Positions 20,136 to 31,477 of a stretch of 36,117 nt of DNA are shown in pieces (position 1 is the stretch's first letter; every line of letters begins with the position of its first letter). Both the position numbers and the translations under genes were made by a program. Origin of the DNA: a virus; the IMG/VR virus record IMGVR_UViG_3300032086_001102, positions 1-36,117 of that record; one strand, 5' to 3'. The notes under the pieces are model-generated. The model did no database searches. It had not been told where the DNA came from and saw nothing but the letters and a program-made list of their open reading frames with translations.

Positions 20136-23100
20136 ATGCCTAATGAAAAGCTATCTATACAAGACTTCGCTGCTCAAATTAAAGCAAAATATCCAGAGTA
20201 TAAAGATTACGATGACACTGTACTTACGGAAGCTATTTTAGATAAGTACCCTGTATATCAAGGTCAAGTAGATTACGCTCCAAAAAAAAAAGAAGTTACT
20301 CCTTCACCATCTTTGGGTGGAGAGTCAGTATCAGTCGCTGAGGTTGAAGAAGCTCCTAACCCTATTTGGGGAAAAATTAAAGAGCTTGATGCTGCATTTG
20401 GTAGAGCTATAGCTCATGCACCTATTCTTGGTGAGCTTGTAGCTGGTTCGGACAGACTTGTTTCAGGTCTTCTTGACTACACCAACATGACCCTTGACTA
20501 CATGATGGCAGCTCAGGTTCCTAGTGCTGCGCCATTCAAGGAAAAATTAGAATTCGTTCAAAGTTCAACAGGTGATAATGTTCTTGATCGCCTGGCTGAC
20601 GGTTGGTCTAACAATGCAGACTACATACGTGAGACACGTAACCTGTCTGCTGGTATATCTAAAGAAGATGCAGAGAAAGGTATAGTCGGACTTTTAGGTC
20701 AAGGTGACTATGGTAAAGCAGCTTTCCTAACACTTAGTGGTGCTACAGAAGCTGTTCCTTCTATTGCTTTAGCGGCAAGTACAGGTCTAGCTCCTGTGAG
20801 TCTTAGTGCTGCTGGTAGCAAATACCGTGAGATTGAAGACAACCCGATCTACTCTCCAGTAGAGAAGTTTCTTTTCGCTAATGCTTCAGGTCTTGTAGAA
20901 GGCTTATCAGAGATGATGGGTGGTGGGGACCTTCGTGCAATGCAGAAAATACTAGGTAACAAGCAAGCTCTTGATGCATACAGAAACGCATTCATAAACA
21001 CAGCTAAAAAGAGCGACCTATACATCCAGATGGGTAAGGCCGGTCTTGAAGAAGGTTTTGAAGAAGCTATCGTAGCATCATTTGATGAAGCTGTTGCATC
21101 TATCAAAGAAGGACGTCCTGTAAACTACAACAGAATTGCTGACGACTTTCTAGTAGGTATGACTGCCGGTGGTGGTACCATGGTAACAGCTAATGGGTTG
21201 AGTGCTCGTGGTTCCTTAAAGAATGAGAAAGCTCGTGCTAAAAGAGCGCAGGAGATAAACGACTTAAAACAAAAGAAGTCTGAAGCTACACCTGAGGAAG
21301 CAGTCAGTATTGACAATATGATCAAAAAGAATGTATCAGCTATGCGTACATTGATTGATCAGGATGCAGAATTCTTCAGCACATTCTCTAAAGAAGATCA
21401 GGAAAGAATAAGAGCTATTGACCAACAGCTAAACGATATTGAAAAGGCAAGAGCCCTTGCTCCTGATGGTGAGATTAAGTTTTTGCTACAGTCACAATCT
21501 TTAGAGCTTTATGCAGAGAAAGAGAAGATTGAGTCTAAGTACCGTAGCGAAGAAGAGAACAATATTACAGCAAACGCTAGTCAAGAGGAGCTTGATGAGA
21601 TAAGAAGAGTTGAGGCTACTATTATTGATAAAAAGCAAAGACTAGAGAACACAGAGTCTGAAACAACCAAAGAGGTAATTCAGTCTCAGATAGATGCCCT
21701 TCAGTTAGAGCTTGACGGTAAAAAGAAAGAGGTTTTAGGTAGAGTCGCCCCTAAGCAAGAGGCTGCGCCTAAGCAAGAGTTCACACCTGAAGAAGAGCCA
21801 GCACCTGTTACTGTTGATTTAGAGGTACCTAAAGATGCACAACCTGCAAACTTTGAAGACCTAATGTCTGGTCGTGTAACGATTAAGACTCCTTCTGGTA
21901 AAACAGAAATGGGTAGAATCATTGATGAAGGTAACGGAAAGATGTCTGTGCGTACTGATGAGGGTAACATCATAGAGGTAGGCAACATTGAAGATCTAAA
22001 AGGCGTAGAAGCTAGCACATTAGGTTTAGCTAAAGCTGAGGAGATTGTATCAATTGAAGGCAATGAAATCACCGTACGTGGTCAACAATATACTAACAAC
22101 TATAGCGACCCTCTGGCTGCGATTAATCGTGATGAAGATGGTAATATTCAGTCTGTTACTTTGGATGCAGCAGACGGCACTAAACGTACTTTTAGAGGCA
22201 CAGCTGGTGACGAGATTGCGTACAACATTATACTGTCTCAGTACTCTGAAGCGGAGCTGGAACAAGAACTAGAAAATTTAGCACAACAAGATGAAGAAAC
22301 AAACACAGAACTTGCCCCGACTCCAGAAGCTGAAGTCGCTCCCGCTCCAGAAACAGCTACAGATACTGAGCAAGCTCCAGAACAAGAGCCTGAGCCAGAA
22401 GCAGCTCCAGAGCCTGAAGTAAAGCCTGAACCAGAAGTAACACCTGAGCAAGAAGCAGCTCCAGAGCCTGAGGCTAAGCAAGATGTTGCACCTGATACTG
22501 ACATTAAACCAGCATTCTCAAGCTGGTCTGAACATGTAGACTATTTTAAAAAAAACCCTGACGCTAGAAAAAGAATAGACGGACCTGTTTTCCCTAAGAG
22601 CTATGGATTAGATATGTCTCCTAAGGTTGAGGTATACCCTAACGGAACGTACAACATTGAAGTTTCTTATAGCGTAAGAAGAAAAGGAGAAGCTTGGGGG
22701 TCTAGCACTTTAGGGATGCTAGAAAATTATTTGAAGGGTCTTCCTTTTGCAGAAGCTCTAGACGAAGCTTTTAATAATATTGAGAACTCTATTTTCAGAA
22801 CAAGCACTCCTGTATATACAGAAAAAGAAATTGCTAAGATCATAAGCATAATTGAGAATTGGCAAAAACAAACTCTTGCTGATAACGAGTTTACCAAACC
22901 GAAAGAGTCATCTACCAAAACAGATGCTGTAGATACAGATATGGCAAGCAGATTTGAAGCCAGCGGTGATATGACTAGCGGTAACCCCAATGTACAGTGG
23001 AAGAACGAAGAGGACTTCTACTCTCAAGTAAACAGAGGTACAGGGATGTCCGATGATTTCAGAAAGCAAGTAGCTGTTGCAGCTGTTATTAATTCAGCTA

Positions 23101-26100
23101 AGAGAGATAAAGCAATACTTGACGGCAAAAAACCTGTTTCAAACAACGAGCTTGTTAACAAGCCTCTTGACAGTATAGAAAGGTTTAGAACCGTAGGCAA
23201 GCAGGGCAAGATAGAATACTTCGCTGGTAGAGAAATGAGCCCAGGAAAGGGATGGAAAGCTATATACGGAATGCCTTTAGCGTCCAGAATAGTAGACACG
23301 GAAGACGTGTTGGTTAAAGCCGGGTTGAAAGAAGAGAAATCTACAGCTGCTCCTGAGATAAAGAAATCTGATGTAGAAAAGATACTTAAGGGTAGATATC
23401 ACTCATTCCAAAAAACAGAAGAGGTTTTAGGTAAGCTGGTTTCCAGAGATCAATCATTTACAGATGGTGGTAAAATAGTTCAAGAGACTTTTGAGAAAGC
23501 TACCATACAACAGATACTAGCCAACGATGGATCAAGAGTTGAGCGACTACTTGATAAAAACGGTAATCCTATAGGTGACCCTCTAATCAATATCAGATTA
23601 GACTCTGAGGACATGAAGAAGTTCCTTGAAGGACAGTCTGGTAATATGTTTAGCATTACAGATAAGCAGATTACAGAAATATTCAGAAAGAAGCTTCAAA
23701 GTGGTGCTAAGCCTGCGCTAGAAGCAGCTCCATCTAAACCAGAGAAAAAATCAGAGTCTAAGAAAAAACCTATACCTAGTAAGCAGGACATCATTGATGC
23801 TGAACGTCACACTCCTCTAAGCTTAAATTCAGACGCTAACGTAAAGAACATAAAAGATATCGTCAAGTTCGGTATTGGCGTGATGATAGAGTCTGATAAA
23901 GAAGGCGCTAAAAAGAAAAAGTTCTTTAAGCATTCAAACCCAAAAACTAAATATGGTTTAGTAGGTCCAGGATTCAAGCAGAATGATATTCAAGAGGTGA
24001 AGAAAGTAATTATTGAGTTCGTTCAAGGATATAACTCAATGATCAACAGCATGCCAGAGGAAGCTAGACCTAAGGATATGCTTATTGATTCTCGTAAGAA
24101 GGCTATTGATGCTATTAAATCTTACGTAAAAGACAAGACATATCCTGTTGGTGTAAACAAGATATTGTACGACACTGTAACCATTGGTGATGTGAGCAAG
24201 GTGCTAACCTTTGCTGATGCTATCAAACAGATGGATGATAGCGAATTCGCTAAGCTTAAAAACTATACAGAAAAGTCTGACAAGAAATCAGGAGCTAAGC
24301 CAACTGTTATCGCTGGTGTAAAGCTAACAGATGAAGAGGCTAAGCGTGCTGCCGGTTATACTGTACCTGCTGAAGATTTAAAGAACTTCTTTGTTACAAA
24401 AAAGGGAGAACCTTTTACAGTTCCTAACAAAGAATGGTGGGAGGTCGCTAAAAAAATAATGAACCTAGGCGCTGGTGTAAGCGTAAGACTAGATATTTAC
24501 GAAGGTGGGTTTGATAAGAATCCAAAGAGAAAGCGTACAAAAGACGCACCTAAAACAATACATATACACGGAGGAGATAAAAACGCTGCAAAAAGCGTAA
24601 AGGATGTATTGGAATTTAAATACAAGGGTTTAAAAGGTGTGGAAGCTATATCAGAACTAGAAGAAGACTTCTTCTTTAAGCTAGCGAATCCATGGATTGA
24701 AAGAATTGAATCAAAAGGAAAAGTAAAGAAATTCAAACCAGAGACAGTTGGTCAAGTCAAGTGGGGTAATAACGGTATGTACGGCTTTGATTTGATAACC
24801 AAAGCAAGAGCTTTTGACGCTCTAAGCAAAGGCAAACCTGCTAAAAAACTAGTTCTTGATGGATACGAATCTGACAACTTTAGTGATTACGCTACAGAGA
24901 GTCTTCTACCTAAAGACATTAAAGACCTAAAAGCCGAAGGCTTTGATGTAGAGAAGGAGTATGTATCTGCTGTAGCTAAAGCATTTAACGAAACAGAAGA
25001 AGCTGTACGCAAAGCATTAGGGTTTGATGCTATCACTGATGACTCTGAGGTTGTTGCTGTTAAGTATCCAAAGACCGAAGAGTTAACTGGAGCTGACGTT
25101 GCACCTTCTGGTGCTTACACTGATCAAAAAACTCAGACTGTAAACAGCAAAGAGGTAGGTCCTGTGAAGTTTAAGAGCTCAATGGTATCTAAGAACAAGA
25201 CAGGCGAGCTTACCATACAGCAAAGAATATACGAGGAGAACGATACCTTTAATCTTACCGGTCCAGAGACTATAAAAGGTCCTGAAGATGTAGCTTTCTT
25301 GTTACGTCACCTTGAGTCTGCGGCATCTGAGAATGCATTCTTGGTTATCGCTAATAAGGATGGTGACTATAAAACTATTTGGTTAGGTACGGGTACTCAA
25401 AACTCTCAGTCTATTGATCCGTTAGAAATAGCAGCAAGTATTGATTCTGCTAGATATGATCTAAAAGGTGATGAAGTATTCGTTTACTTTGTTCACAACC
25501 ACCCTTCAGGTAACCTGTCTTCAAGTCCGGGAGACAAGGCAGTATTCGCTAAGCTGGAGACATACGTCAATACATTGAAAGGAGTTACACTGATGGACGG
25601 AATAATCGTGAACCTGGACAGTGGACAGTTTACTACTTTTAATAGCCGTAGAAACACAGACACGCCAGACGTTCGTAAAACAAAAGATTTAATACCGGCG
25701 CCTGTATACTCTTTTTCAAGAAAAGAGGTTTACGTACCTGCTTCAGAAAGGGTTGGTATATTGAGCTCTGATGCTATCTCTAAGTTCATGACGAACATCA
25801 AGGTTAAGAATACAAATAAGATAGGCCACATTGTTCTTGATCAATCTTTTTCAATAACTTATTTCGCATTCGTAAAACCTAATATATCTGGAGCTGAGTG
25901 GGCTAGAACCATGGCTGCTGACATTGGTAGACACGGTAAAGCTGTTGTCGTAGTCGGGCCATCGTCAGAAAGCAGTAAAGTACAAGCAGCTGTAAACGCT
26001 TTAAAAAAGATGCAGCTTAATGCACAGGTACTTGACTCATCGGTTAATGCTGCCAACCTACGTACTGACGAGCCTACTGTGGATTACGTAATTCTTGAGG

Positions 26101-29021
26101 AGCCTACACCTGAGTTCTCAGAAAAGCAAGGCTACAAGCCTTTATCAGAGGACGAGCTAGACCACCCTTCTAGAGTTAAGTCTTTCCTTGATATGATTAA
26201 GGGATACAAGTGGTCACAGGTTCAGAAAGAGGTTATTAAATACGAAGAAGCTAGAGGGTCAAAGGTTGCTATCAAAATGAAAGGTCTTGGTAAAGCTTTG
26301 AACCAGCTCAAGAGAGATCTTGGCGGTACGTTCTTCGCAAGAAAGACTCAAGGCATCACTAAAGAAGAAGCACTAAAAGGACAGATGTTGGCTCATAGAT
26401 TTATGTCTGAATCAAACAAGTCTGCTGTTGTTGATGATATCCTTAAGCTAAAGAATGGTGAGCGTATACTTAAGAACTTACGTATCTTAAGAATGACCTT
26501 TGACGATGCTTCAACAGCATTAGCTACAGAGTCTACGTTCAGCAAGCTTCCTCAGGAGACGAGAGAGAATATCCTTGACAACCTTGGTGTATATCTACAC
26601 CGCTCTTACAGGTTCTTTGAAGACCCAACATACCGATTTAAATTCAGTAGAGCTGGTAAACTTCTAGGTCTTGACAAAGCTCCAAGAAACCAAGCTGTTG
26701 AGGCTGAGTTTATGATACTCCATAACAACTGGATTCAGAAGTTGATGGATGAAGCTGGCTACACCAGAGAGCAGGCTATACGTTCTACATTGGTTAAGGC
26801 TACGAAAGGAGATAAGAAGGGATTGTCAAAGAGAGAACTGTTACTAAAAGAAGCTCAGGACAATATTGACAACCTTGTTAGAGACTACAACAACCTGTTG
26901 AACGACAGAAAGAAGATGCGTGCTCAAGGTAAGGGTACAAATATTCCTAACAGTGCATTCCTGGAGAAGAAAGATATACCTGTACACATCAGAGAGCTTC
27001 TCGGTGAAGTCAAAGACCCTATTGCTGTTATGGCTGCTACCGGTCAAACACTCTTTAATATCTACGAAAAAGGTAAGATGGTAGAGATGCTGTCAAAAGG
27101 TATCTACGAAAACCTTAAGAACGTGTACGCTAACGAGGAGTACGGTAAAGACTTCTCTAAGCTTGATGCTAAACAGCAAAAACAGATTCTTGACAGAGCT
27201 CAGAAAGAGCCTATGATCAAGCTGAACAAGGATATCACGGAACGTGATAAGGCTACGTTCAAGCAAATCAATGACCCTATGAGCCCTCTAAATACAAGAT
27301 GGGTACACAAAGATATCGTTGAAATCATACAAGCATCTCCAATCTACGAGACAAATAAATCAGGTCTTGAAGGTGGTTTCTGGAGATCATACTTCTTCAC
27401 ACTAAAGAACCTACGTATGGTTAACGTGTTGCTTAACACTCCTACTTGGGGTAAGAACGCCATTGGTACGCTGTACTTCTCTGCTGCTAACGGTTGGTTC
27501 AACCCTGTTGACCAAGCAAAGAACCTCAAGGCAAGTGTTGAAGGATTGCTAAAAGGCGACCCTAAATACTTTGAGATGCTTGAAGAGATGGCAGAGAATG
27601 GATTGATTGGACAGTCGTTTAGTGTAAACCAAATTGGTCTATCAGCATTTGCTTACTACTACGGTGTTACTGGAGATAAATCTTTCTACGACAAGTATGT
27701 AGCGACAACAAAAAACATTAGCAAGAAGGTTCTTGGTGACCTCGGTAGCCTTTACGCTTCTATTGATGACTTTGGTAAGATGTCTATTTACCAGAACGAG
27801 CGTGCATCATTTGCCCGTAAGATGTATGGAGCTGAATATGAAGACCTGTCTGCACCACAGCAGAAGAAGGTTAGAGCTGCTGCCGCAGAACGTGTTAAAG
27901 ATAACACACCTACCTGGGGACGTATCACTAAAGCGGGTAGAGCTGCACAGAGATTGCCTATTGGTGACTTCCAAGGCTTCCGCTTTGAGGCGTTTAGAAG
28001 TACTTACAGAATCGTTCGTAACACAATGGATGATCTAAACGTGTTGATGAATGACAAGAGTTTAAGTGAAGAGCAGAAGAACGAATACAGAAAAGATATC
28101 GCAAGAAAGATGACTGGGCTTGGCTTCGTTGGAACCTCTGCTCCATATGCTATCATTAAAGGAATGTCTTACGGTAACTGGATACTATCATCTGTATTGG
28201 GTATGTTCGGATTTGATGATGACGAGGAAGAACGTAAGAAGAAGATTAATGCTTACGACTCAGCTACAGAGGTAAGACCTGGATGGTTGAAGCATCACAA
28301 GGTATGGGTTAAGAGTATTGATGACGACCTAAAGGTTCGTGTATACGACTACACTGGTTTTGATCCATACGCTGAGGTGTTTGGGTTTGATGGATACTTC
28401 AGTGTGATGCAGGACGTTGTTCAACCAAACATGGCTGTAAATATCTTTACCTCTATTGCTAAGAATCAAGATGTATATGGTCGTGATATTGCTGATCCAT
28501 CTGACCCAGCATTCCGTAGAATTATGGAACTGGCTAAATACGGTGGCTCTCAATTCCTACCATCTTTGATAACCTCATCAACTAGAGATGCGTCTAAGAG
28601 ACAAGAAGAGATTGACAAGGTTAAGAGATACTTGAAGCTACAAGGTCTTAATGCTAATGACTTTGGAATTGAAGATGTGAATGTACCTAAGGAAACATTG
28701 AAGCTGATCAAAGACAGAATGTTGGTACGTGACTACGAGTACGATATGGTACAGCAGTTTAACTACGCTGTTAAAGGATACAAGAAAAGCTTTGGTGAAA
28801 ACTACTTAACCAGTAAGTACCCAGAGCATAGAAAAGCTATCCTTGACGATGTAATGAAGATGTACACAGCTGTTGTGAAAGTTGCAGCATATAAAGGTAA
28901 CTACACTAAGATTGATGACGCTACTAAAATCATTGAAAGAAACTTTGATGATACTGAGGTGGACTACATGTTCAACGGTAGAGATTACAGTGATGCTATA
29001 CCAAAAGGGTACTTTGACTAA
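20136..29021 (+). CDS. Giant polyvalent virion protein with RadC/JAB metalloprotease motif
   Basis: 2961 residues in one open frame. Residues ~1-45 (FAAQIKAKYPEYKDYDD) repeat a K-Y-P-x-Y motif; ~50-360 are helical and partly hydrophobic; ~355-535 are strongly coiled-coil; ~720-785 is a Pro/Glu-rich linker (EPEPEAAPEPE). The most recognisable domain is RadC/JAB-like at ~1722-1838: HNHPSGNLSSSPGD gives H1787, H1789, S1797 and D1800 in the JAMM pattern HxH-x7-SxxD. The segment after it (~1850-1970) is mixed alpha/beta. The last ~950 residues are long helices without known motifs. The lengthy chain with several small domains fits the polyvalent proteins of phages, presumably packaged and ejected with DNA, as for the gp16 position of T7. 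No polymerase, lytic transglycosylase or other catalytic motif was seen by eye. An unusual run of 10 As lies near the start. Confidence 0.8.
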   Translation: MPNEKLSIQDFAAQIKAKYPEYKDYDDTVLTEAILDKYPVYQGQVDYAPKKKEVTPSPSLGGESVSVAEVEEAPNPIWGKIKELDAAFGRAIAHAPILGELVAGSDRLVSGLLDYTNMTLDYMMAAQVPSAAPFKEKLEFVQSSTGDNVLDRLADGWSNNADYIRETRNLSAGISKEDAEKGIVGLLGQGDYGKAAFLTLSGATEAVPSIALAASTGLAPVSLSAAGSKYREIEDNPIYSPVEKFLFANASGLVEGLSEMMGGGDLRAMQKILGNKQALDAYRNAFINTAKKSDLYIQMGKAGLEEGFEEAIVASFDEAVASIKEGRPVNYNRIADDFLVGMTAGGGTMVTANGLSARGSLKNEKARAKRAQEINDLKQKKSEATPEEAVSIDNMIKKNVSAMRTLIDQDAEFFSTFSKEDQERIRAIDQQLNDIEKARALAPDGEIKFLLQSQSLELYAEKEKIESKYRSEEENNITANASQEELDEIRRVEATIIDKKQRLENTESETTKEVIQSQIDALQLELDGKKKEVLGRVAPKQEAAPKQEFTPEEEPAPVTVDLEVPKDAQPANFEDLMSGRVTIKTPSGKTEMGRIIDEGNGKMSVRTDEGNIIEVGNIEDLKGVEASTLGLAKAEEIVSIEGNEITVRGQQYTNNYSDPLAAINRDEDGNIQSVTLDAADGTKRTFRGTAGDEIAYNIILSQYSEAELEQELENLAQQDEETNTELAPTPEAEVAPAPETATDTEQAPEQEPEPEAAPEPEVKPEPEVTPEQEAAPEPEAKQDVAPDTDIKPAFSSWSEHVDYFKKNPDARKRIDGPVFPKSYGLDMSPKVEVYPNGTYNIEVSYSVRRKGEAWGSSTLGMLENYLKGLPFAEALDEAFNNIENSIFRTSTPVYTEKEIAKIISIIENWQKQTLADNEFTKPKESSTKTDAVDTDMASRFEASGDMTSGNPNVQWKNEEDFYSQVNRGTGMSDDFRKQVAVAAVINSAKRDKAILDGKKPVSNNELVNKPLDSIERFRTVGKQGKIEYFAGREMSPGKGWKAIYGMPLASRIVDTEDVLVKAGLKEEKSTAAPEIKKSDVEKILKGRYHSFQKTEEVLGKLVSRDQSFTDGGKIVQETFEKATIQQILANDGSRVERLLDKNGNPIGDPLINIRLDSEDMKKFLEGQSGNMFSITDKQITEIFRKKLQSGAKPALEAAPSKPEKKSESKKKPIPSKQDIIDAERHTPLSLNSDANVKNIKDIVKFGIGVMIESDKEGAKKKKFFKHSNPKTKYGLVGPGFKQNDIQEVKKVIIEFVQGYNSMINSMPEEARPKDMLIDSRKKAIDAIKSYVKDKTYPVGVNKILYDTVTIGDVSKVLTFADAIKQMDDSEFAKLKNYTEKSDKKSGAKPTVIAGVKLTDEEAKRAAGYTVPAEDLKNFFVTKKGEPFTVPNKEWWEVAKKIMNLGAGVSVRLDIYEGGFDKNPKRKRTKDAPKTIHIHGGDKNAAKSVKDVLEFKYKGLKGVEAISELEEDFFFKLANPWIERIESKGKVKKFKPETVGQVKWGNNGMYGFDLITKARAFDALSKGKPAKKLVLDGYESDNFSDYATESLLPKDIKDLKAEGFDVEKEYVSAVAKAFNETEEAVRKALGFDAITDDSEVVAVKYPKTEELTGADVAPSGAYTDQKTQTVNSKEVGPVKFKSSMVSKNKTGELTIQQRIYEENDTFNLTGPETIKGPEDVAFLLRHLESAASENAFLVIANKDGDYKTIWLGTGTQNSQSIDPLEIAASIDSARYDLKGDEVFVYFVHNHPSGNLSSSPGDKAVFAKLETYVNTLKGVTLMDGIIVNLDSGQFTTFNSRRNTDTPDVRKTKDLIPAPVYSFSRKEVYVPASERVGILSSDAISKFMTNIKVKNTNKIGHIVLDQSFSITYFAFVKPNISGAEWARTMAADIGRHGKAVVVVGPSSESSKVQAAVNALKKMQLNAQVLDSSVNAANLRTDEPTVDYVILEEPTPEFSEKQGYKPLSEDELDHPSRVKSFLDMIKGYKWSQVQKEVIKYEEARGSKVAIKMKGLGKALNQLKRDLGGTFFARKTQGITKEEALKGQMLAHRFMSESNKSAVVDDILKLKNGERILKNLRILRMTFDDASTALATESTFSKLPQETRENILDNLGVYLHRSYRFFEDPTYRFKFSRAGKLLGLDKAPRNQAVEAEFMILHNNWIQKLMDEAGYTREQAIRSTLVKATKGDKKGLSKRELLLKEAQDNIDNLVRDYNNLLNDRKKMRAQGKGTNIPNSAFLEKKDIPVHIRELLGEVKDPIAVMAATGQTLFNIYEKGKMVEMLSKGIYENLKNVYANEEYGKDFSKLDAKQQKQILDRAQKEPMIKLNKDITERDKATFKQINDPMSPLNTRWVHKDIVEIIQASPIYETNKSGLEGGFWRSYFFTLKNLRMVNVLLNTPTWGKNAIGTLYFSAANGWFNPVDQAKNLKASVEGLLKGDPKYFEMLEEMAENGLIGQSFSVNQIGLSAFAYYYGVTGDKSFYDKYVATTKNISKKVLGDLGSLYASIDDFGKMSIYQNERASFARKMYGAEYEDLSAPQQKKVRAAAAERVKDNTPTWGRITKAGRAAQRLPIGDFQGFRFEAFRSTYRIVRNTMDDLNVLMNDKSLSEEQKNEYRKDIARKMTGLGFVGTSAPYAIIKGMSYGNWILSSVLGMFGFDDDEEERKKKINAYDSATEVRPGWLKHHKVWVKSIDDDLKVRVYDYTGFDPYAEVFGFDGYFSVMQDVVQPNMAVNIFTSIAKNQDVYGRDIADPSDPAFRRIMELAKYGGSQFLPSLITSSTRDASKRQEEIDKVKRYLKLQGLNANDFGIEDVNVPKETLKLIKDRMLVRDYEYDMVQQFNYAVKGYKKSFGENYLTSKYPEHRKAILDDVMKMYTAVVKVAAYKGNYTKIDDATKIIERNFDDTEVDYMFNGRDYSDAIPKGYFD

Positions 29022-29053: not shown

Positions 29054-29308
29054 ATGAAACAACTAATCAAAAAAGTTATGAGCTTCGGAGAAATTTTTAA
29101 AAACGACAACAGCTACAATGAAAAGACTGTCATTGGCTTTCTATCATTTGCTGTTATGGTTTTAGTGATGGTAGCTGACGTAGTCAGTGGTGCCTTCGGA
29201 AAGGATTTAGTGATCAATGAATTCACTTACAATTCTTTCGTAATAGTGACTCTTGGGTCATTTGGTATCGCGGGCTTGGAGAAGTTTGCTGGTAAAAAAG
29301 CAGAGTAA
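29054..29308 (+). CDS. Putative holin
   Basis: 84 residues. Two hydrophobic segments at ~25-46 (VIGFLSFAVMVLVMVADVVSG) and ~59-80 (YNSFVIVTLGSFGIAGLEKF), with a basic N terminus (MKQLIKKVM) and a charged C-terminal tail (AGKKAE). The size and topology fit a two-TM holin. It stands directly before a DUF5675 gene and a candidate spanin, and the TAATG junction to the next gene argues for one lysis operon. Pore formation in the inner membrane is inferred. Confidence 0.65.
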   Translation: MKQLIKKVMSFGEIFKNDNSYNEKTVIGFLSFAVMVLVMVADVVSGAFGKDLVINEFTYNSFVIVTLGSFGIAGLEKFAGKKAE

Positions 29309-29802
29309 TGGACTTAGAAGTATTACGCTTCAGCAGTCAGGAAGACAGCACCAATGGGATACTATTCAATGTTACTGGAGGAAAAAGAGAGTTCTTATGC
29401 TACACGCTTGAAGATGAGCATAGGAATAAGAAAGTCGCTGGCGAGACTAGAATCCCTGCCGGAACATACGACCTTGTCCTCAGAAAAGTTGGTGGATTCC
29501 ACAGCAGATATTTAAATAAGTATGGGGAAATGCACAAAGGAATGTTATGGGTATGGGACGTGCCTGGCTTTGAGTATATCCTTATTCACACTGGTAATAC
29601 TGATGAACATACTGCTGGGTGTCTTCTCGTTGGTGATAGTCAACAAGCGAATTTTGGCGAAAGCAATGGTTTCGTTGGCTCGTCTAATAAGGCGTATAAA
29701 AGAATTTATCCTCCCATCGCCAAGGCAATAGAGGATGGAGAAAAGGTTACTATTACCTACGTTGACTTTGACAGCGAAGGTATATTCTATGCAAAAATAT
29801 GA
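29308..29802 (+). CDS. DUF5675 lysis-associated protein
   Basis: 164 residues. The signature ETRIPAGTYDLVLRKVGGFH, then KGMLWVWDVPGFEYILIHTG and TAGCLLVGDSQ, is that of the DUF5675 family. His94 in HTGN and Cys105 in AGCLLVG, eleven residues apart, recall the His and Cys of L,D-transpeptidase-like active sites; this link is speculative. No signal peptide is seen, so export would depend on the holin. The neighbours (holin before, ART-like protein and candidate spanin after) make a cell-wall-cleaving role likely, filling the otherwise missing endolysin slot. The ATG is coupled to the holin stop (TAATG) and its stop overlaps the next start (ATGA). Confidence 0.65.
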   Translation: MDLEVLRFSSQEDSTNGILFNVTGGKREFLCYTLEDEHRNKKVAGETRIPAGTYDLVLRKVGGFHSRYLNKYGEMHKGMLWVWDVPGFEYILIHTGNTDEHTAGCLLVGDSQQANFGESNGFVGSSNKAYKRIYPPIAKAIEDGEKVTITYVDFDSEGIFYAKI

Positions 29803-30842
29803 AAGCAAAGAACAGATACAAAAAAGGTGGACATCTACCTCCAGCTATAAGGAGGCTAAGAGAAAGAGCTAATCGTAATAATTTAAAACCAAAACCAATT
29901 CAAGGTGGTTTTCTTGATGAGGTTTCTGTAACAGCCCCTGTATACGAAGGGCCAATGATAAGACGCTCAACTGCGGATGAATTACAACCAACCAACAGCA
30001 ACTTCAGAATGATAGGCGCTGACAGGAGTGGTGGTCTTAGTGCATTGAGAGGGTTAGGAAAGGGAATAGCAAGACTTATTAAGGGTAATCGTTCTAATAT
30101 TGCAAAGAATATTGATCTTGAGGCTATACAAAACGCATACGATAAACAAATGAGTATACCTTATGGAGCTAATATGGATATTGCAAGCGATGTATTTCCG
30201 GGAGGTGCTCTGTATGGTAAGGGTTCTGCATTTTCAAAACCCGAAACATTAGAGAGAATAGCTAATTTTCAAAAAGATTTATCACCTGTTCCTTTTCTGT
30301 ATACCCACGGAACTGGTTCAAGTGCTCTTCCAGGCATATTCAAGAACAAGGGATTGATATCAGCTGAAGAATTACAGAGAGCTGGTAAATTGGTAACAGG
30401 AGAGGGTGTAGAAGTGAACCAAATGATTCAAGGCGTTAGAGATGCTCAGAATACTGTTTCTACAGCATCTATAGCTAACCCTGGAGCAGCTGCTGGTTAC
30501 GCCATAAGGTATGGAAAAGGTGCTAATAATTACCCTGTTGTATTTGGTATCAACCCTAAATACGGTGCTCAATCAAGAATGAGTATACCTAGATCTACAA
30601 TTGAAGGCGAGGCTATGTTTAATAAAGGTATAGGTTTTGACGAAATAAGTAACATATTTGTTCCAGACGCAAACAAAGCTCAGTTTATGAAAACATATGG
30701 AGGTCAGCTGGGTAACATAAAAGTAGGATCGTTTGACGATTATGTAAATCAAGCTCAAGCGTTACAGAGAAGAAAGATAAGTGGAGCAAGCCCATTCCTT
30801 TATAAAAAAGGTGGTTCGGTAAAATCAAAGTATAAAAAATGA
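29799..30842 (+). CDS. Putative ADP-ribosyltransferase-like protein in the lysis cassette
   Basis: 347 residues. The N terminus is basic (MKAKNRYKKGGHLPPAIRRL), a loose linker follows, and residues ~165-315 form a recognisable core: FLYTHGTGSSALPGIFKNKG with H170 in HGT, a GYAIRYG segment (Y234), and a EGEAMFNKGIGFDEISNIFV segment with E269/E271. The order HGT, Y, then E, with a GL(I) after the first motif and an I-F-V-P near the end, fits the H-Y-E type of ART/PARP-like NAD-dependent transferases. The substrate is unknown. The C terminus is again basic with a YKKGG. It overlaps both neighbours by 4 bases (ATGA). Confidence 0.6.
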   Translation: MKAKNRYKKGGHLPPAIRRLRERANRNNLKPKPIQGGFLDEVSVTAPVYEGPMIRRSTADELQPTNSNFRMIGADRSGGLSALRGLGKGIARLIKGNRSNIAKNIDLEAIQNAYDKQMSIPYGANMDIASDVFPGGALYGKGSAFSKPETLERIANFQKDLSPVPFLYTHGTGSSALPGIFKNKGLISAEELQRAGKLVTGEGVEVNQMIQGVRDAQNTVSTASIANPGAAAGYAIRYGKGANNYPVVFGINPKYGAQSRMSIPRSTIEGEAMFNKGIGFDEISNIFVPDANKAQFMKTYGGQLGNIKVGSFDDYVNQAQALQRRKISGASPFLYKKGGSVKSKYKK

Positions 30843-31267
30843 AATGGCTGGCAAAGTTAACTCTAATGCTGTTATTAACGAGTTGCAGCGCACAATGGCA
30901 CTTGAAGAGAGCGGTGCAAAAAGATCCTTTGATTCTGGAAAAAGATACGTTGGTTGTCACCGACACGGTTGTAAGCCCACCTGTGGCTATCACGGATACT
31001 GTGACTTTGAAGCAACACGACACTATAACTGTAGTGAAGGATCGTCTGAAGGTACAATTAGTAAAGGTGCAAGACACCATTATTATAGACGCAGTATGCG
31101 ACTCGGATACGATAATAACAACGATTGAAGTACCCTACGAAAAGATAGTTTATGTACAACAAAAAACACTTGGTCAAAAAATACAATCATTAGTTTTTTA
31201 CTTTGGGCTAGTACTACTAGCATTGTATATAGTAAGAAGACTAATTGATAATGTATTGAATGGCTAA
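30839..31267 (+). CDS. Lipoprotein with C-terminal TM, candidate unimolecular spanin
   Basis: 142 residues. The N-terminal signal MKWLAKLTLMLLLTSC ends in a lipobox with Cys16, so the processed protein is an outer-membrane lipoprotein. A beta-rich stretch rich in Val, Thr, Asp and Ile follows (residues ~35-110), then a C-terminal TM helix at ~115-133 (SLVFYFGLVLLALYIVRR). One chain joining outer-membrane lipid anchor and inner-membrane helix is the hallmark of u-spanins such as that of phage T1. The position after holin and DUF5675 supports this. Overlap ATGA with the upstream gene. A second frame over this gene has a 94-residue ORF, which looks like a shadow. Confidence 0.65.
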   Translation: MKWLAKLTLMLLLTSCSAQWHLKRAVQKDPLILEKDTLVVTDTVVSPPVAITDTVTLKQHDTITVVKDRLKVQLVKVQDTIIIDAVCDSDTIITTIEVPYEKIVYVQQKTLGQKIQSLVFYFGLVLLALYIVRRLIDNVLNG

Positions 31268-31373
31268 ACGAAAAAAACAACAGCAACCTCGTAAGAAGGA
31301 GTACTGCGAGATTGAACCTAAGGAGTGTGACGGTAACTGCTGTTACGCAAAGAGCAAAAAAAAAGGAGGCTAA
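31260..31373 (+). CDS. 37-residue Cys-rich basic microprotein
   Basis: 37 codons from the ATG at 31260, overlapping the preceding stop by 8 bases. The product is Lys-rich at both ends and has four Cys (16, 23, 27 and 28), with E-Y-C-E-I and C-D-G-N-C-C-Y, ending in KKKGG. The four Cys could bind metal or form disulphides. The last codons and TAA lie inside a terminator hairpin: the TAA is in the loop. Function is unknown. It is the last gene of the late operon. Confidence 0.6.
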   Translation: MAKRKKQQQPRKKEYCEIEPKECDGNCCYAKSKKKGG

Positions 31374-31383
31374 TGCCTCCTTT
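31362..31383 (+). terminator. Terminator ending the late operon
   Basis: A perfect 9-base-pair stem (AAAGGAGGC with GCCTCCTTT) and a TAAT loop that holds the stop codon of the microgene. A-rich on the left and T-rich on the right, it can act for both strands. Confidence 0.85.
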
Positions 31384-31477
31384 CTCTTATCTGAAAACTA
31401 TAACTCAATACCAAAGAAATGTGGGGAGAGAGATTCGGTACGAGATACAGGTCAAATATATAAAACATATATGACAT
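31384..31477. other. Intergenic region between convergent gene blocks
   Basis: About 95 bases between two facing terminators. No ORF with a plausible start, no -7 box and no tRNA-like fold was seen; it is slightly A/T-rich with an ATATAAAACATATATG stretch. It looks like a plain convergent junction. Confidence 0.6.

What the first reader, a model, noticed from the sequence alone, without database searches (positions are those of the whole stretch)
29799..30842. ADP-ribosyltransferase-like protein inside the lysis cassette
The core of this 347-residue protein has HGT (H170), a GYAIRYG strand (Y234) and an EGEAMF (E269/E271) in the order of H-Y-E type ART folds, with basic tails at both ends. 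It sits between DUF5675 and the candidate spanin and overlaps both genes. Phage ARTs are known for modifying host transcription or translation after injection; a late-operon, lysis-linked ART could be packaged in the virion or act as a host-directed effector. I know of no described counterpart in this position.
Basis: partly seen in the sequence, partly recalled or inferred. Interest (0 to 1): 0.72.

Follow-up and report, generated by a model that had tools for sequence, protein, structure and literature searches.

The report
Stand-alone divergent phage ADP-ribosyltransferase-fold gene
A phage that probably infects marine flavobacteria carries, inside its cell-lysis operon, a swappable gene for a protein with the fold of ADP-ribosyltransferases (enzymes that tag other molecules using NAD); its distant relatives sit inside giant proteins of other phages, so it is probably a host-modifying effector, perhaps carried in the virus particle.

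Summary
Window 29799-30842 (+) is a 347-codon ORF with basic tails and 4-nt overlaps with DUF5675 and a lipoprotein/TM spanin candidate. It is under purifying selection (dN 0.019, dS 0.155). Pfam, NCBIfam, PADLOC and PDB sequences give no meaningful match; the only PHROG hit (E 0.16) is chance. A pattern search gave four further lineages (29-39% identity), all inside large phage proteins, one beside a true ART-PolyVal domain. H170, Y234 and E271 are invariant where covered; E269 is not. An AlphaFold2 domain model (pLDDT 56, pTM 0.59) finds ADP-ribosyltransferases first (DarT, Tpt1), with modest scores (Foldseek E 1.2e-3, Z 6.7). The ART fold is supported; a strict H-Y-E site is not, as Y234 lies in the helix after strand 2.

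The gene fills an optional slot, empty in 10 of 14 related contigs. It is 95% identical to its only close relative while the flanks are about 70%: a recently exchanged cassette. Its K-G-G tags recur on other slot genes and resemble the ends of phiCrAss001 virion cargo protein gp45. Best reading: an NAD-using, probably virion-delivered effector; activity, target and packaging are untested.

The parts
29799..30842 (+). ORF of the finding: 347-aa basic protein (pI about 10), KGG tag - linker - ART-like domain - KGG tag
   Evidence: purifying selection against L012
29799..29831 (+). N-terminal tag MKAKNRYKKGG, similar starts on other genes of the slot region; left edge of the high-identity tract lies here
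30213..30770 (+). ART-like domain (residues 139-324): FLYTHGT, LPGI..GL, VSTA, GYA, YPVVFGI, GEAMF, EISNIFVP
30306..30314 (+). H170-G171-T172, predicted NAD-binding motif of the first strand
30459..30467 (+). S221-T222-A223, where canonical ARTs have the strand-2 Tyr/Ser
   Evidence: alignment to ART-PolyVal (weak)
30498..30500 (+). Y234, invariant, in the helix after strand 2
30609..30611 (+). E271, invariant, candidate catalytic glutamate (E269 is not conserved)
30801..30839 (+). C-terminal tag YKKGGSVKSKYKK
29308..29802 (+). DUF5675 (PF18925), endolysin-like gene upstream, 4-nt overlap
29054..29308 (+). 84-aa protein with a strong hydrophobic segment, holin candidate
30839..31267 (+). lipoprotein (LTSC lipobox) with C-terminal TM segment: unimolecular-spanin candidate, 4-nt overlap
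29826..30905 (+). tract about 95% identical to L012 between flanks of about 70% identity: exchanged cassette
31357..31388 (.). bidirectional terminator-like hairpin closing the late operon

Best explanation
The gene encodes a divergent NAD-using enzyme of the ADP-ribosyltransferase superfamily. NAD is predicted to bind at the HGT strand, with Y234 near the nicotinamide and E271 as the catalytic glutamate. It works as a host-modifying effector made late, most probably loaded into the particle by way of its basic K-G-G tailed ends and delivered into the next host with the DNA, where it ADP-ribosylates a host macromolecule (target unknown). It is a single-module version of a domain that other phages build into giant proteins of the virion gene region, and it is exchanged between phages as a cassette in an optional slot of the lysis operon. 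Shown by tools: gene, selection, domain family, moderate fold match, optional slot, cassette exchange. Inferred: enzyme activity, packaging, delivery, target.
For: Fold: the best Foldseek matches of the domain model are DarT (7yk3 E 1.2e-3, prob 0.99; 8baq; 7omv) and Tpt1 (7yw4), followed by CC0527 (ART-like fold, from memory), cholera A1 and KptA, with unrelated chains only at E 0.2 and worse. VIA-align rows are almost all ART-superfamily chains, best Z 6.7, rmsd 4.1 over 129 residues. Conservation: H170-G-T, Y234 and E271 invariant where covered. Constraint: dN/dS about 0.12. Context of homologs: one 1558-aa protein also holds ART-PolyVal PF18760 (E 3e-14) and lies two genes from the major head protein; those of L122 and L124 directly follow a virion structural gene, which in L124 is distantly related to phiCrAss001 gp44 (E 1.8e-4), so the domain-bearing gene is where cargo gene gp45 lies in phiCrAss001. 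Tags: the window N- and C-tails score 2nd and 1st of 99 crAss001 ORFs for gp45 (2 and 5 of 2000 shuffles reach the score), and gp45 is a virion cargo protein (PMC10172136). Slot: empty in 10 of 14 contigs; cassette identity 0.95 against 0.70 (sd 0.06) for the flanks.
Against: No profile library gives a meaningful hit, even at E 5. The model is of modest confidence (pLDDT 56, pTM 0.59) and Z stays under 8. Profile comparison with ART-PolyVal is weak (score 15.4; 5 of 150 column-permuted controls reach it), and the strong match to another phage ART set is circular because that set was chosen by a near-identical HGT pattern. The strand-2 catalytic Tyr is missing. The gp45-like tags are absent from phi14:2 and the other phages checked, so they are no general packaging signal; the tags are short and basic. 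No virion proteomics for this phage.
Confidence: 0.45

Rival explanations
1. An active ART that is not packaged: made late in the infected cell with the lysis genes, it modifies host or phage macromolecules before lysis, for example to adjust lysis timing, block superinfection or counter a defence.
For: Position and translational coupling inside the late lysis operon; small single-domain protein without membrane segment; no virion data.
Against: The slot is optional, so lysis does not need it. Homologous domains lie in the head/virion structural region rather than with lysis genes. Terminal tags resemble a virion cargo protein.
Confidence: 0.25
2. The ART fold is kept but catalysis is lost: the domain binds a ligand or host protein, or is a structural part of the particle.
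For: The canonical strand-2 Tyr is missing; no profile match to active ART families.
Against: H170-G-T, Y234 and E271 are invariant where covered (partly by selection for the HGT motif); residues next to E271 vary while it does not.
Confidence: 0.18
3. A nucleic-acid-directed enzyme like DarT (DNA base ADP-ribosylation) or Tpt1/KptA (RNA end processing), acting on host or phage nucleic acid rather than protein; this overlaps with the best explanation except for the substrate.
For: DarT and Tpt1 are the nearest solved structures; basic protein, pI about 10.
Against: No Pfam match to DarT or PTS_2-RNA; no macrodomain partner among the four neighbouring genes scanned; nearest folds of a modest model do not give the substrate.
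Confidence: 0.25
4. Not an ART; the HGT, Tyr and Glu are chance and the modest model matches ARTs by common topology.
For: Low model confidence; Z under 8; no profile hit.
Against: All eleven best Foldseek matches are ART-superfamily or ART-like-fold chains, and the VIA rows agree; motif order and conservation fit the fold.
Confidence: 0.1

Closest known systems
DarT (DNA ADP-ribosyltransferase toxin, PF14487)
   Same: Nearest solved structures (7yk3, 8baq, 7omx), best Z 6.7
   Different: No sequence or profile match, no DarG-like macrodomain neighbour, phage late-operon setting
Tpt1/KptA RNA 2'-phosphotransferase (PF01885)
   Same: Second-nearest fold (7yw4, Z 6.5)
   Different: No profile match; its set of catalytic residues (from memory Arg/His) is not the one conserved here
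ART-PolyVal (PF18760), ARTs of phage polyvalent proteins (Iyer et al. 2017, PMC5512222)
   Same: Same setting: the homologous domain of L112 lies in a multi-domain phage protein that also carries ART-PolyVal; His in strand 1
   Different: That family is described as H-Y-D with Tyr in strand 2; here no strand-2 Tyr, Glu instead of Asp, no profile match, and a stand-alone single-domain gene
T4 Alt (virion-packaged ART)
   Same: A phage ART made late and injected with the DNA is the model for the proposed mode of action
   Different: Alt is R-S-E; packaging is not shown here
phiCrAss001 gp45, cargo protein C1 (PMC10172136)
   Same: Similar basic N-terminus (AKKKIKRRGKMPPNI / AKNRYKKGGHLPPAI) and C-terminus (KGGKVRTKKKK / KGGSVKSKYKK)
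   Different: Only the ends resemble each other; no relation of the bodies was found

Membership tests
ADP-ribosyltransferase superfamily | ART fold (split beta-sheet) | tested here: met
   Moderate confidence: domain model pTM 0.59 whose best matches are ART-superfamily or ART-like-fold chains
ADP-ribosyltransferase superfamily | NAD-binding first-strand motif (His or Arg) | tested here: met
   HGT at 170-172, invariant in all rows covering it; rows were partly selected by this motif
ADP-ribosyltransferase superfamily | Conserved acidic residue at the start of a late strand | tested here: met
   E271 invariant in 7 of 7 rows
ADP-ribosyltransferase superfamily | NAD cleavage or ADP-ribose transfer | not testable with these tools
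   Needs biochemistry
H-Y-E (PARP/diphtheria-like) ARTs | Tyr in strand 2 as second catalytic residue | tested here: inconclusive
   Y234 is invariant but modelled in the following helix; the strand-2 region reads VSTA with pLDDT under 50
ART-PolyVal PF18760 | Profile match over the curated cut-off | tested here: not met
   No hit at E 5 for the window protein; a separate domain of L112 scored 54 bits as positive control
DarT PF14487 | Profile match over the curated cut-off | tested here: not met
   No hit at E 5
DarT PF14487 | DarG macrodomain antitoxin next to the gene | tested here: not met
   Four neighbouring gene products scanned, no macrodomain
Tpt1/KptA PF01885 | Profile match over the curated cut-off | tested here: not met
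   No hit at E 5
T4 Alt/ModA/ModB (R-S-E) ARTs | Arg in strand 1 | tested here: not met
   His at 170 in all rows covering it
Phage polyvalent proteins | Two or more domains in one polypeptide | tested here: not met
   The window gene holds one recognised domain; homologs L112, L113, L117 lie in proteins of about 1,480-2,160 residues and L110 in one of 1,045
Virion-packaged effectors | Presence in purified particles | not testable with these tools
   No proteomics for this phage

The most novel reading that the evidence does not exclude
The slot between endolysin and spanin in these flavophages is a cassette port for virion-loaded effectors: unrelated genes with a shared K-G-G N-terminal tag are swapped in and out there, the tag serving both as particle-loading signal and as the homology at which cassettes recombine, and this gene is the ADP-ribosyltransferase member.
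Probability: 0.2. Interest if true: 0.72.

Novelty: new variant of a known kind. Interest (0 to 1): 0.52.

Why it matters
Phage ARTs are known in polyvalent proteins and as T4 Alt/Mod, and one survey found them in only about 3% of podo- and siphoviruses (PMC9503650). This adds an ART-like family that current profile libraries miss, present both as a module of giant phage proteins and as a small stand-alone gene that can be expressed and tested. If the tags load cargo into particles, they would give a handle on how crAss-like phages and their relatives choose the proteins they inject, which is open.

Tried and rejected
Profile libraries: Pfam, NCBIfam and PADLOC gave nothing useful; PHROGs gave one chance hit, E 0.16. 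Sequence search of the PDB: only chance hits. Named phages and plasmids by tblastn with the window protein and homolog domains: none. Genome contigs: none by two alignment scans. The first DNA pattern had the wrong spacing and missed the window itself; corrected. The full-length AlphaFold2 model is too poor to use (pLDDT 38.7). hhalign against another phage ART set looked strong (score 40.8, none of 150 controls) but is circular, as that set was picked by a near-identical motif. A TonB-box-like LDEVSVTA at residues 39-46: not found in the other homologs, dropped. A general K-G-G packaging tag across crAss-like phages and relatives: not supported by phi14:2, phi40:1, phi46:3 or elemoE; crAss002 gp30 ends RCGGKKKIA.

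Full report
What is there. Window 29799-30842 on the + strand is a 347-codon ORF. It overlaps the stop of DUF5675 (PF18925, E 2.4e-27) and the start of a lipoprotein with a C-terminal hydrophobic segment by four bases each (ATGA). Upstream lies an 84-aa protein with a strong hydrophobic segment. The order is therefore holin candidate, endolysin-like gene, the finding, spanin candidate, and a bidirectional terminator-like hairpin closes the operon at 31357-31388. The record is a virus record of 36117 bases. By a capsid-region protein the phage is a distant relative of Elemovirus and of Cellulophaga phages (27-32% identity), so a flavobacterial host is likely (inference).

Is it real. The only close relative is in IMGVR_3300025108_000042, 96% identical. 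Between the two, 32 codons differ silently and 14 by replacement, dN 0.019 and dS 0.155: a selected protein. Pfam, NCBIfam, PADLOC and PDB sequences give no meaningful match; PHROGs gives one chance hit, phrog_12075 at E 0.16.

Relatives. A degenerate DNA pattern for YxHGTx4LxxIx4G and alignment scans brought four further lineages, 29-39% identical in the domain: L117/L110, L113, L112/L116 and L121 (partial). All lie in large phage proteins. L121 came from peptide patterns with tblastn confirmation and does not cover the HGT part; the others were found by a pattern with HGT in it, so conservation of that motif is partly by selection. Invariant residues outside the selected motif include Y234, N244, P246, F249-G250, P253, E271, E282-I283 and V288-P289. 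E269 is not conserved. No member was found in INPHARED phages, plasmids or 84,980 species genomes.

Fold. A full-length AlphaFold2 model is poor (pLDDT 38.7). The domain alone (residues 139-324, seven-row alignment) gives pLDDT 56.5 and pTM 0.59, with 47 residues above 70. Foldseek against the PDB ranks DarT, Tpt1 and CC0527 (an ART-like fold, from memory) first, best E 1.2e-3; cholera A1 follows at E 0.11 and KptA structures at E 0.2 and worse, mixed with unrelated chains. VIA-align gives Z 6.7 for DarT and 6.5 for Tpt1, and its rows are almost all ART-superfamily chains. Z below 8 alone would be middling; the agreement of the list is what carries weight. Profile comparison gives no independent support: against ART-PolyVal the score is 15.4, reached by 5 of 150 column-permuted controls, and the strong score against another phage ART set is circular.

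Active site. H170 fits the first-strand His and E271 the late-strand Glu. Y234 lies in the helix after strand 2 in both models; from general knowledge of PARP1 and diphtheria toxin, a Tyr there stacks on nicotinamide, while the second member of the H-Y-E triad sits in strand 2, where this family reads S-x-A. Hence 'ART-like' is supported and 'H-Y-E type' is not settled.

Setting of the homologs. The L112 protein (1558 aa) carries ART-PolyVal (612-777, E 3e-14), our domain at about 920-1130, and by eye a further HHGS-containing stretch and a lysozyme-like end; it lies two genes before the major head protein. In L122 and L124 the domain-bearing gene directly follows a virion structural gene; in L124 that gene is distantly related to phiCrAss001 gp44 (E 1.8e-4), the muzzle, whose next gene in phiCrAss001 is gp45, cargo protein C1. 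Polyvalent proteins of phages are thought to be packaged and injected (PMC5512222).

Slot and cassette. In 14 contigs with DUF5675 and this lipoprotein (the window included), the space between the two is empty in 10 (-11 to +1 nt), 182 nt in L014, holds a different 187-aa gene in L006, and the ART-like gene in two. Some of the 14 are near-identical phages. Between the window phage and L012 the flanks are about 70% identical (34 windows of 300 nt, mean 0.70, sd 0.06, maximum 0.79), the gene 95%. The tract begins about 27 nt into the ORF, at the K-G-G codons, and ends about 65 nt into the lipoprotein gene. It is a recent exchange.

Tags. MKxKxxYxKGG-like starts are on the L006 gene and, after the spanin, on the L008 gene; L017 has a related start. 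K-G-G motifs also recur near domain ends of the large homologs. The window tails score second (N) and first (C) of 99 phiCrAss001 ORFs for gp45; 2 and 5 of 2000 shuffled tags reach the score. The same is not seen in phi14:2, phi40:1, phi46:3 or elemoE. This is a lead, not a demonstration.

Verdict. Most likely a divergent ADP-ribosyltransferase, a single-domain relative of modules in giant phage proteins, exchanged as a cassette and probably used as a host-modifying effector. ART fold about 0.85, active enzyme about 0.65, virion delivery about 0.5 (my estimates). It differs from ART-PolyVal, DarT, KptA and Alt in the tested features listed in the membership table, and is proposed to work like the phage ART effectors.

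Noticed in passing
L112 8676-13349 (-): 1558-aa phage protein with a weak DUF192 match, ART-PolyVal, the new ART-like domain and, by eye, a third HHGS-containing stretch and a lysozyme-like end, with K-G-G motifs between several of them
   Followed up: partly
L017 6467-7558: 364-aa K-G-G tagged protein right after DUF5675 in another related phage; the stretch VYRQVG..HALKEGKI looks like a possible R-type ART start, no Pfam hit
   Followed up: partly
L008 2519-2893 and L016 6140-6670: Small K-G-G containing proteins just downstream of the spanin with an EF-hand-like DxNxDGKI end
   Followed up: no
window 20136-29021: 2961-aa protein with a RadC/JAB domain (PF04002, E 1.3e-7), in the place of the giant structural protein of Elemovirus; otherwise unassigned
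   Followed up: partly
L164 21988-24516 (phiCrAss001 gp45): Virion cargo protein with basic N- and C-terminal ends resembling those of the window protein
   Followed up: partly
window 29913-29936: TonB-box-like LDEVSVTA at residues 39-46 of the window protein, not found in the other homologs
   Followed up: yes
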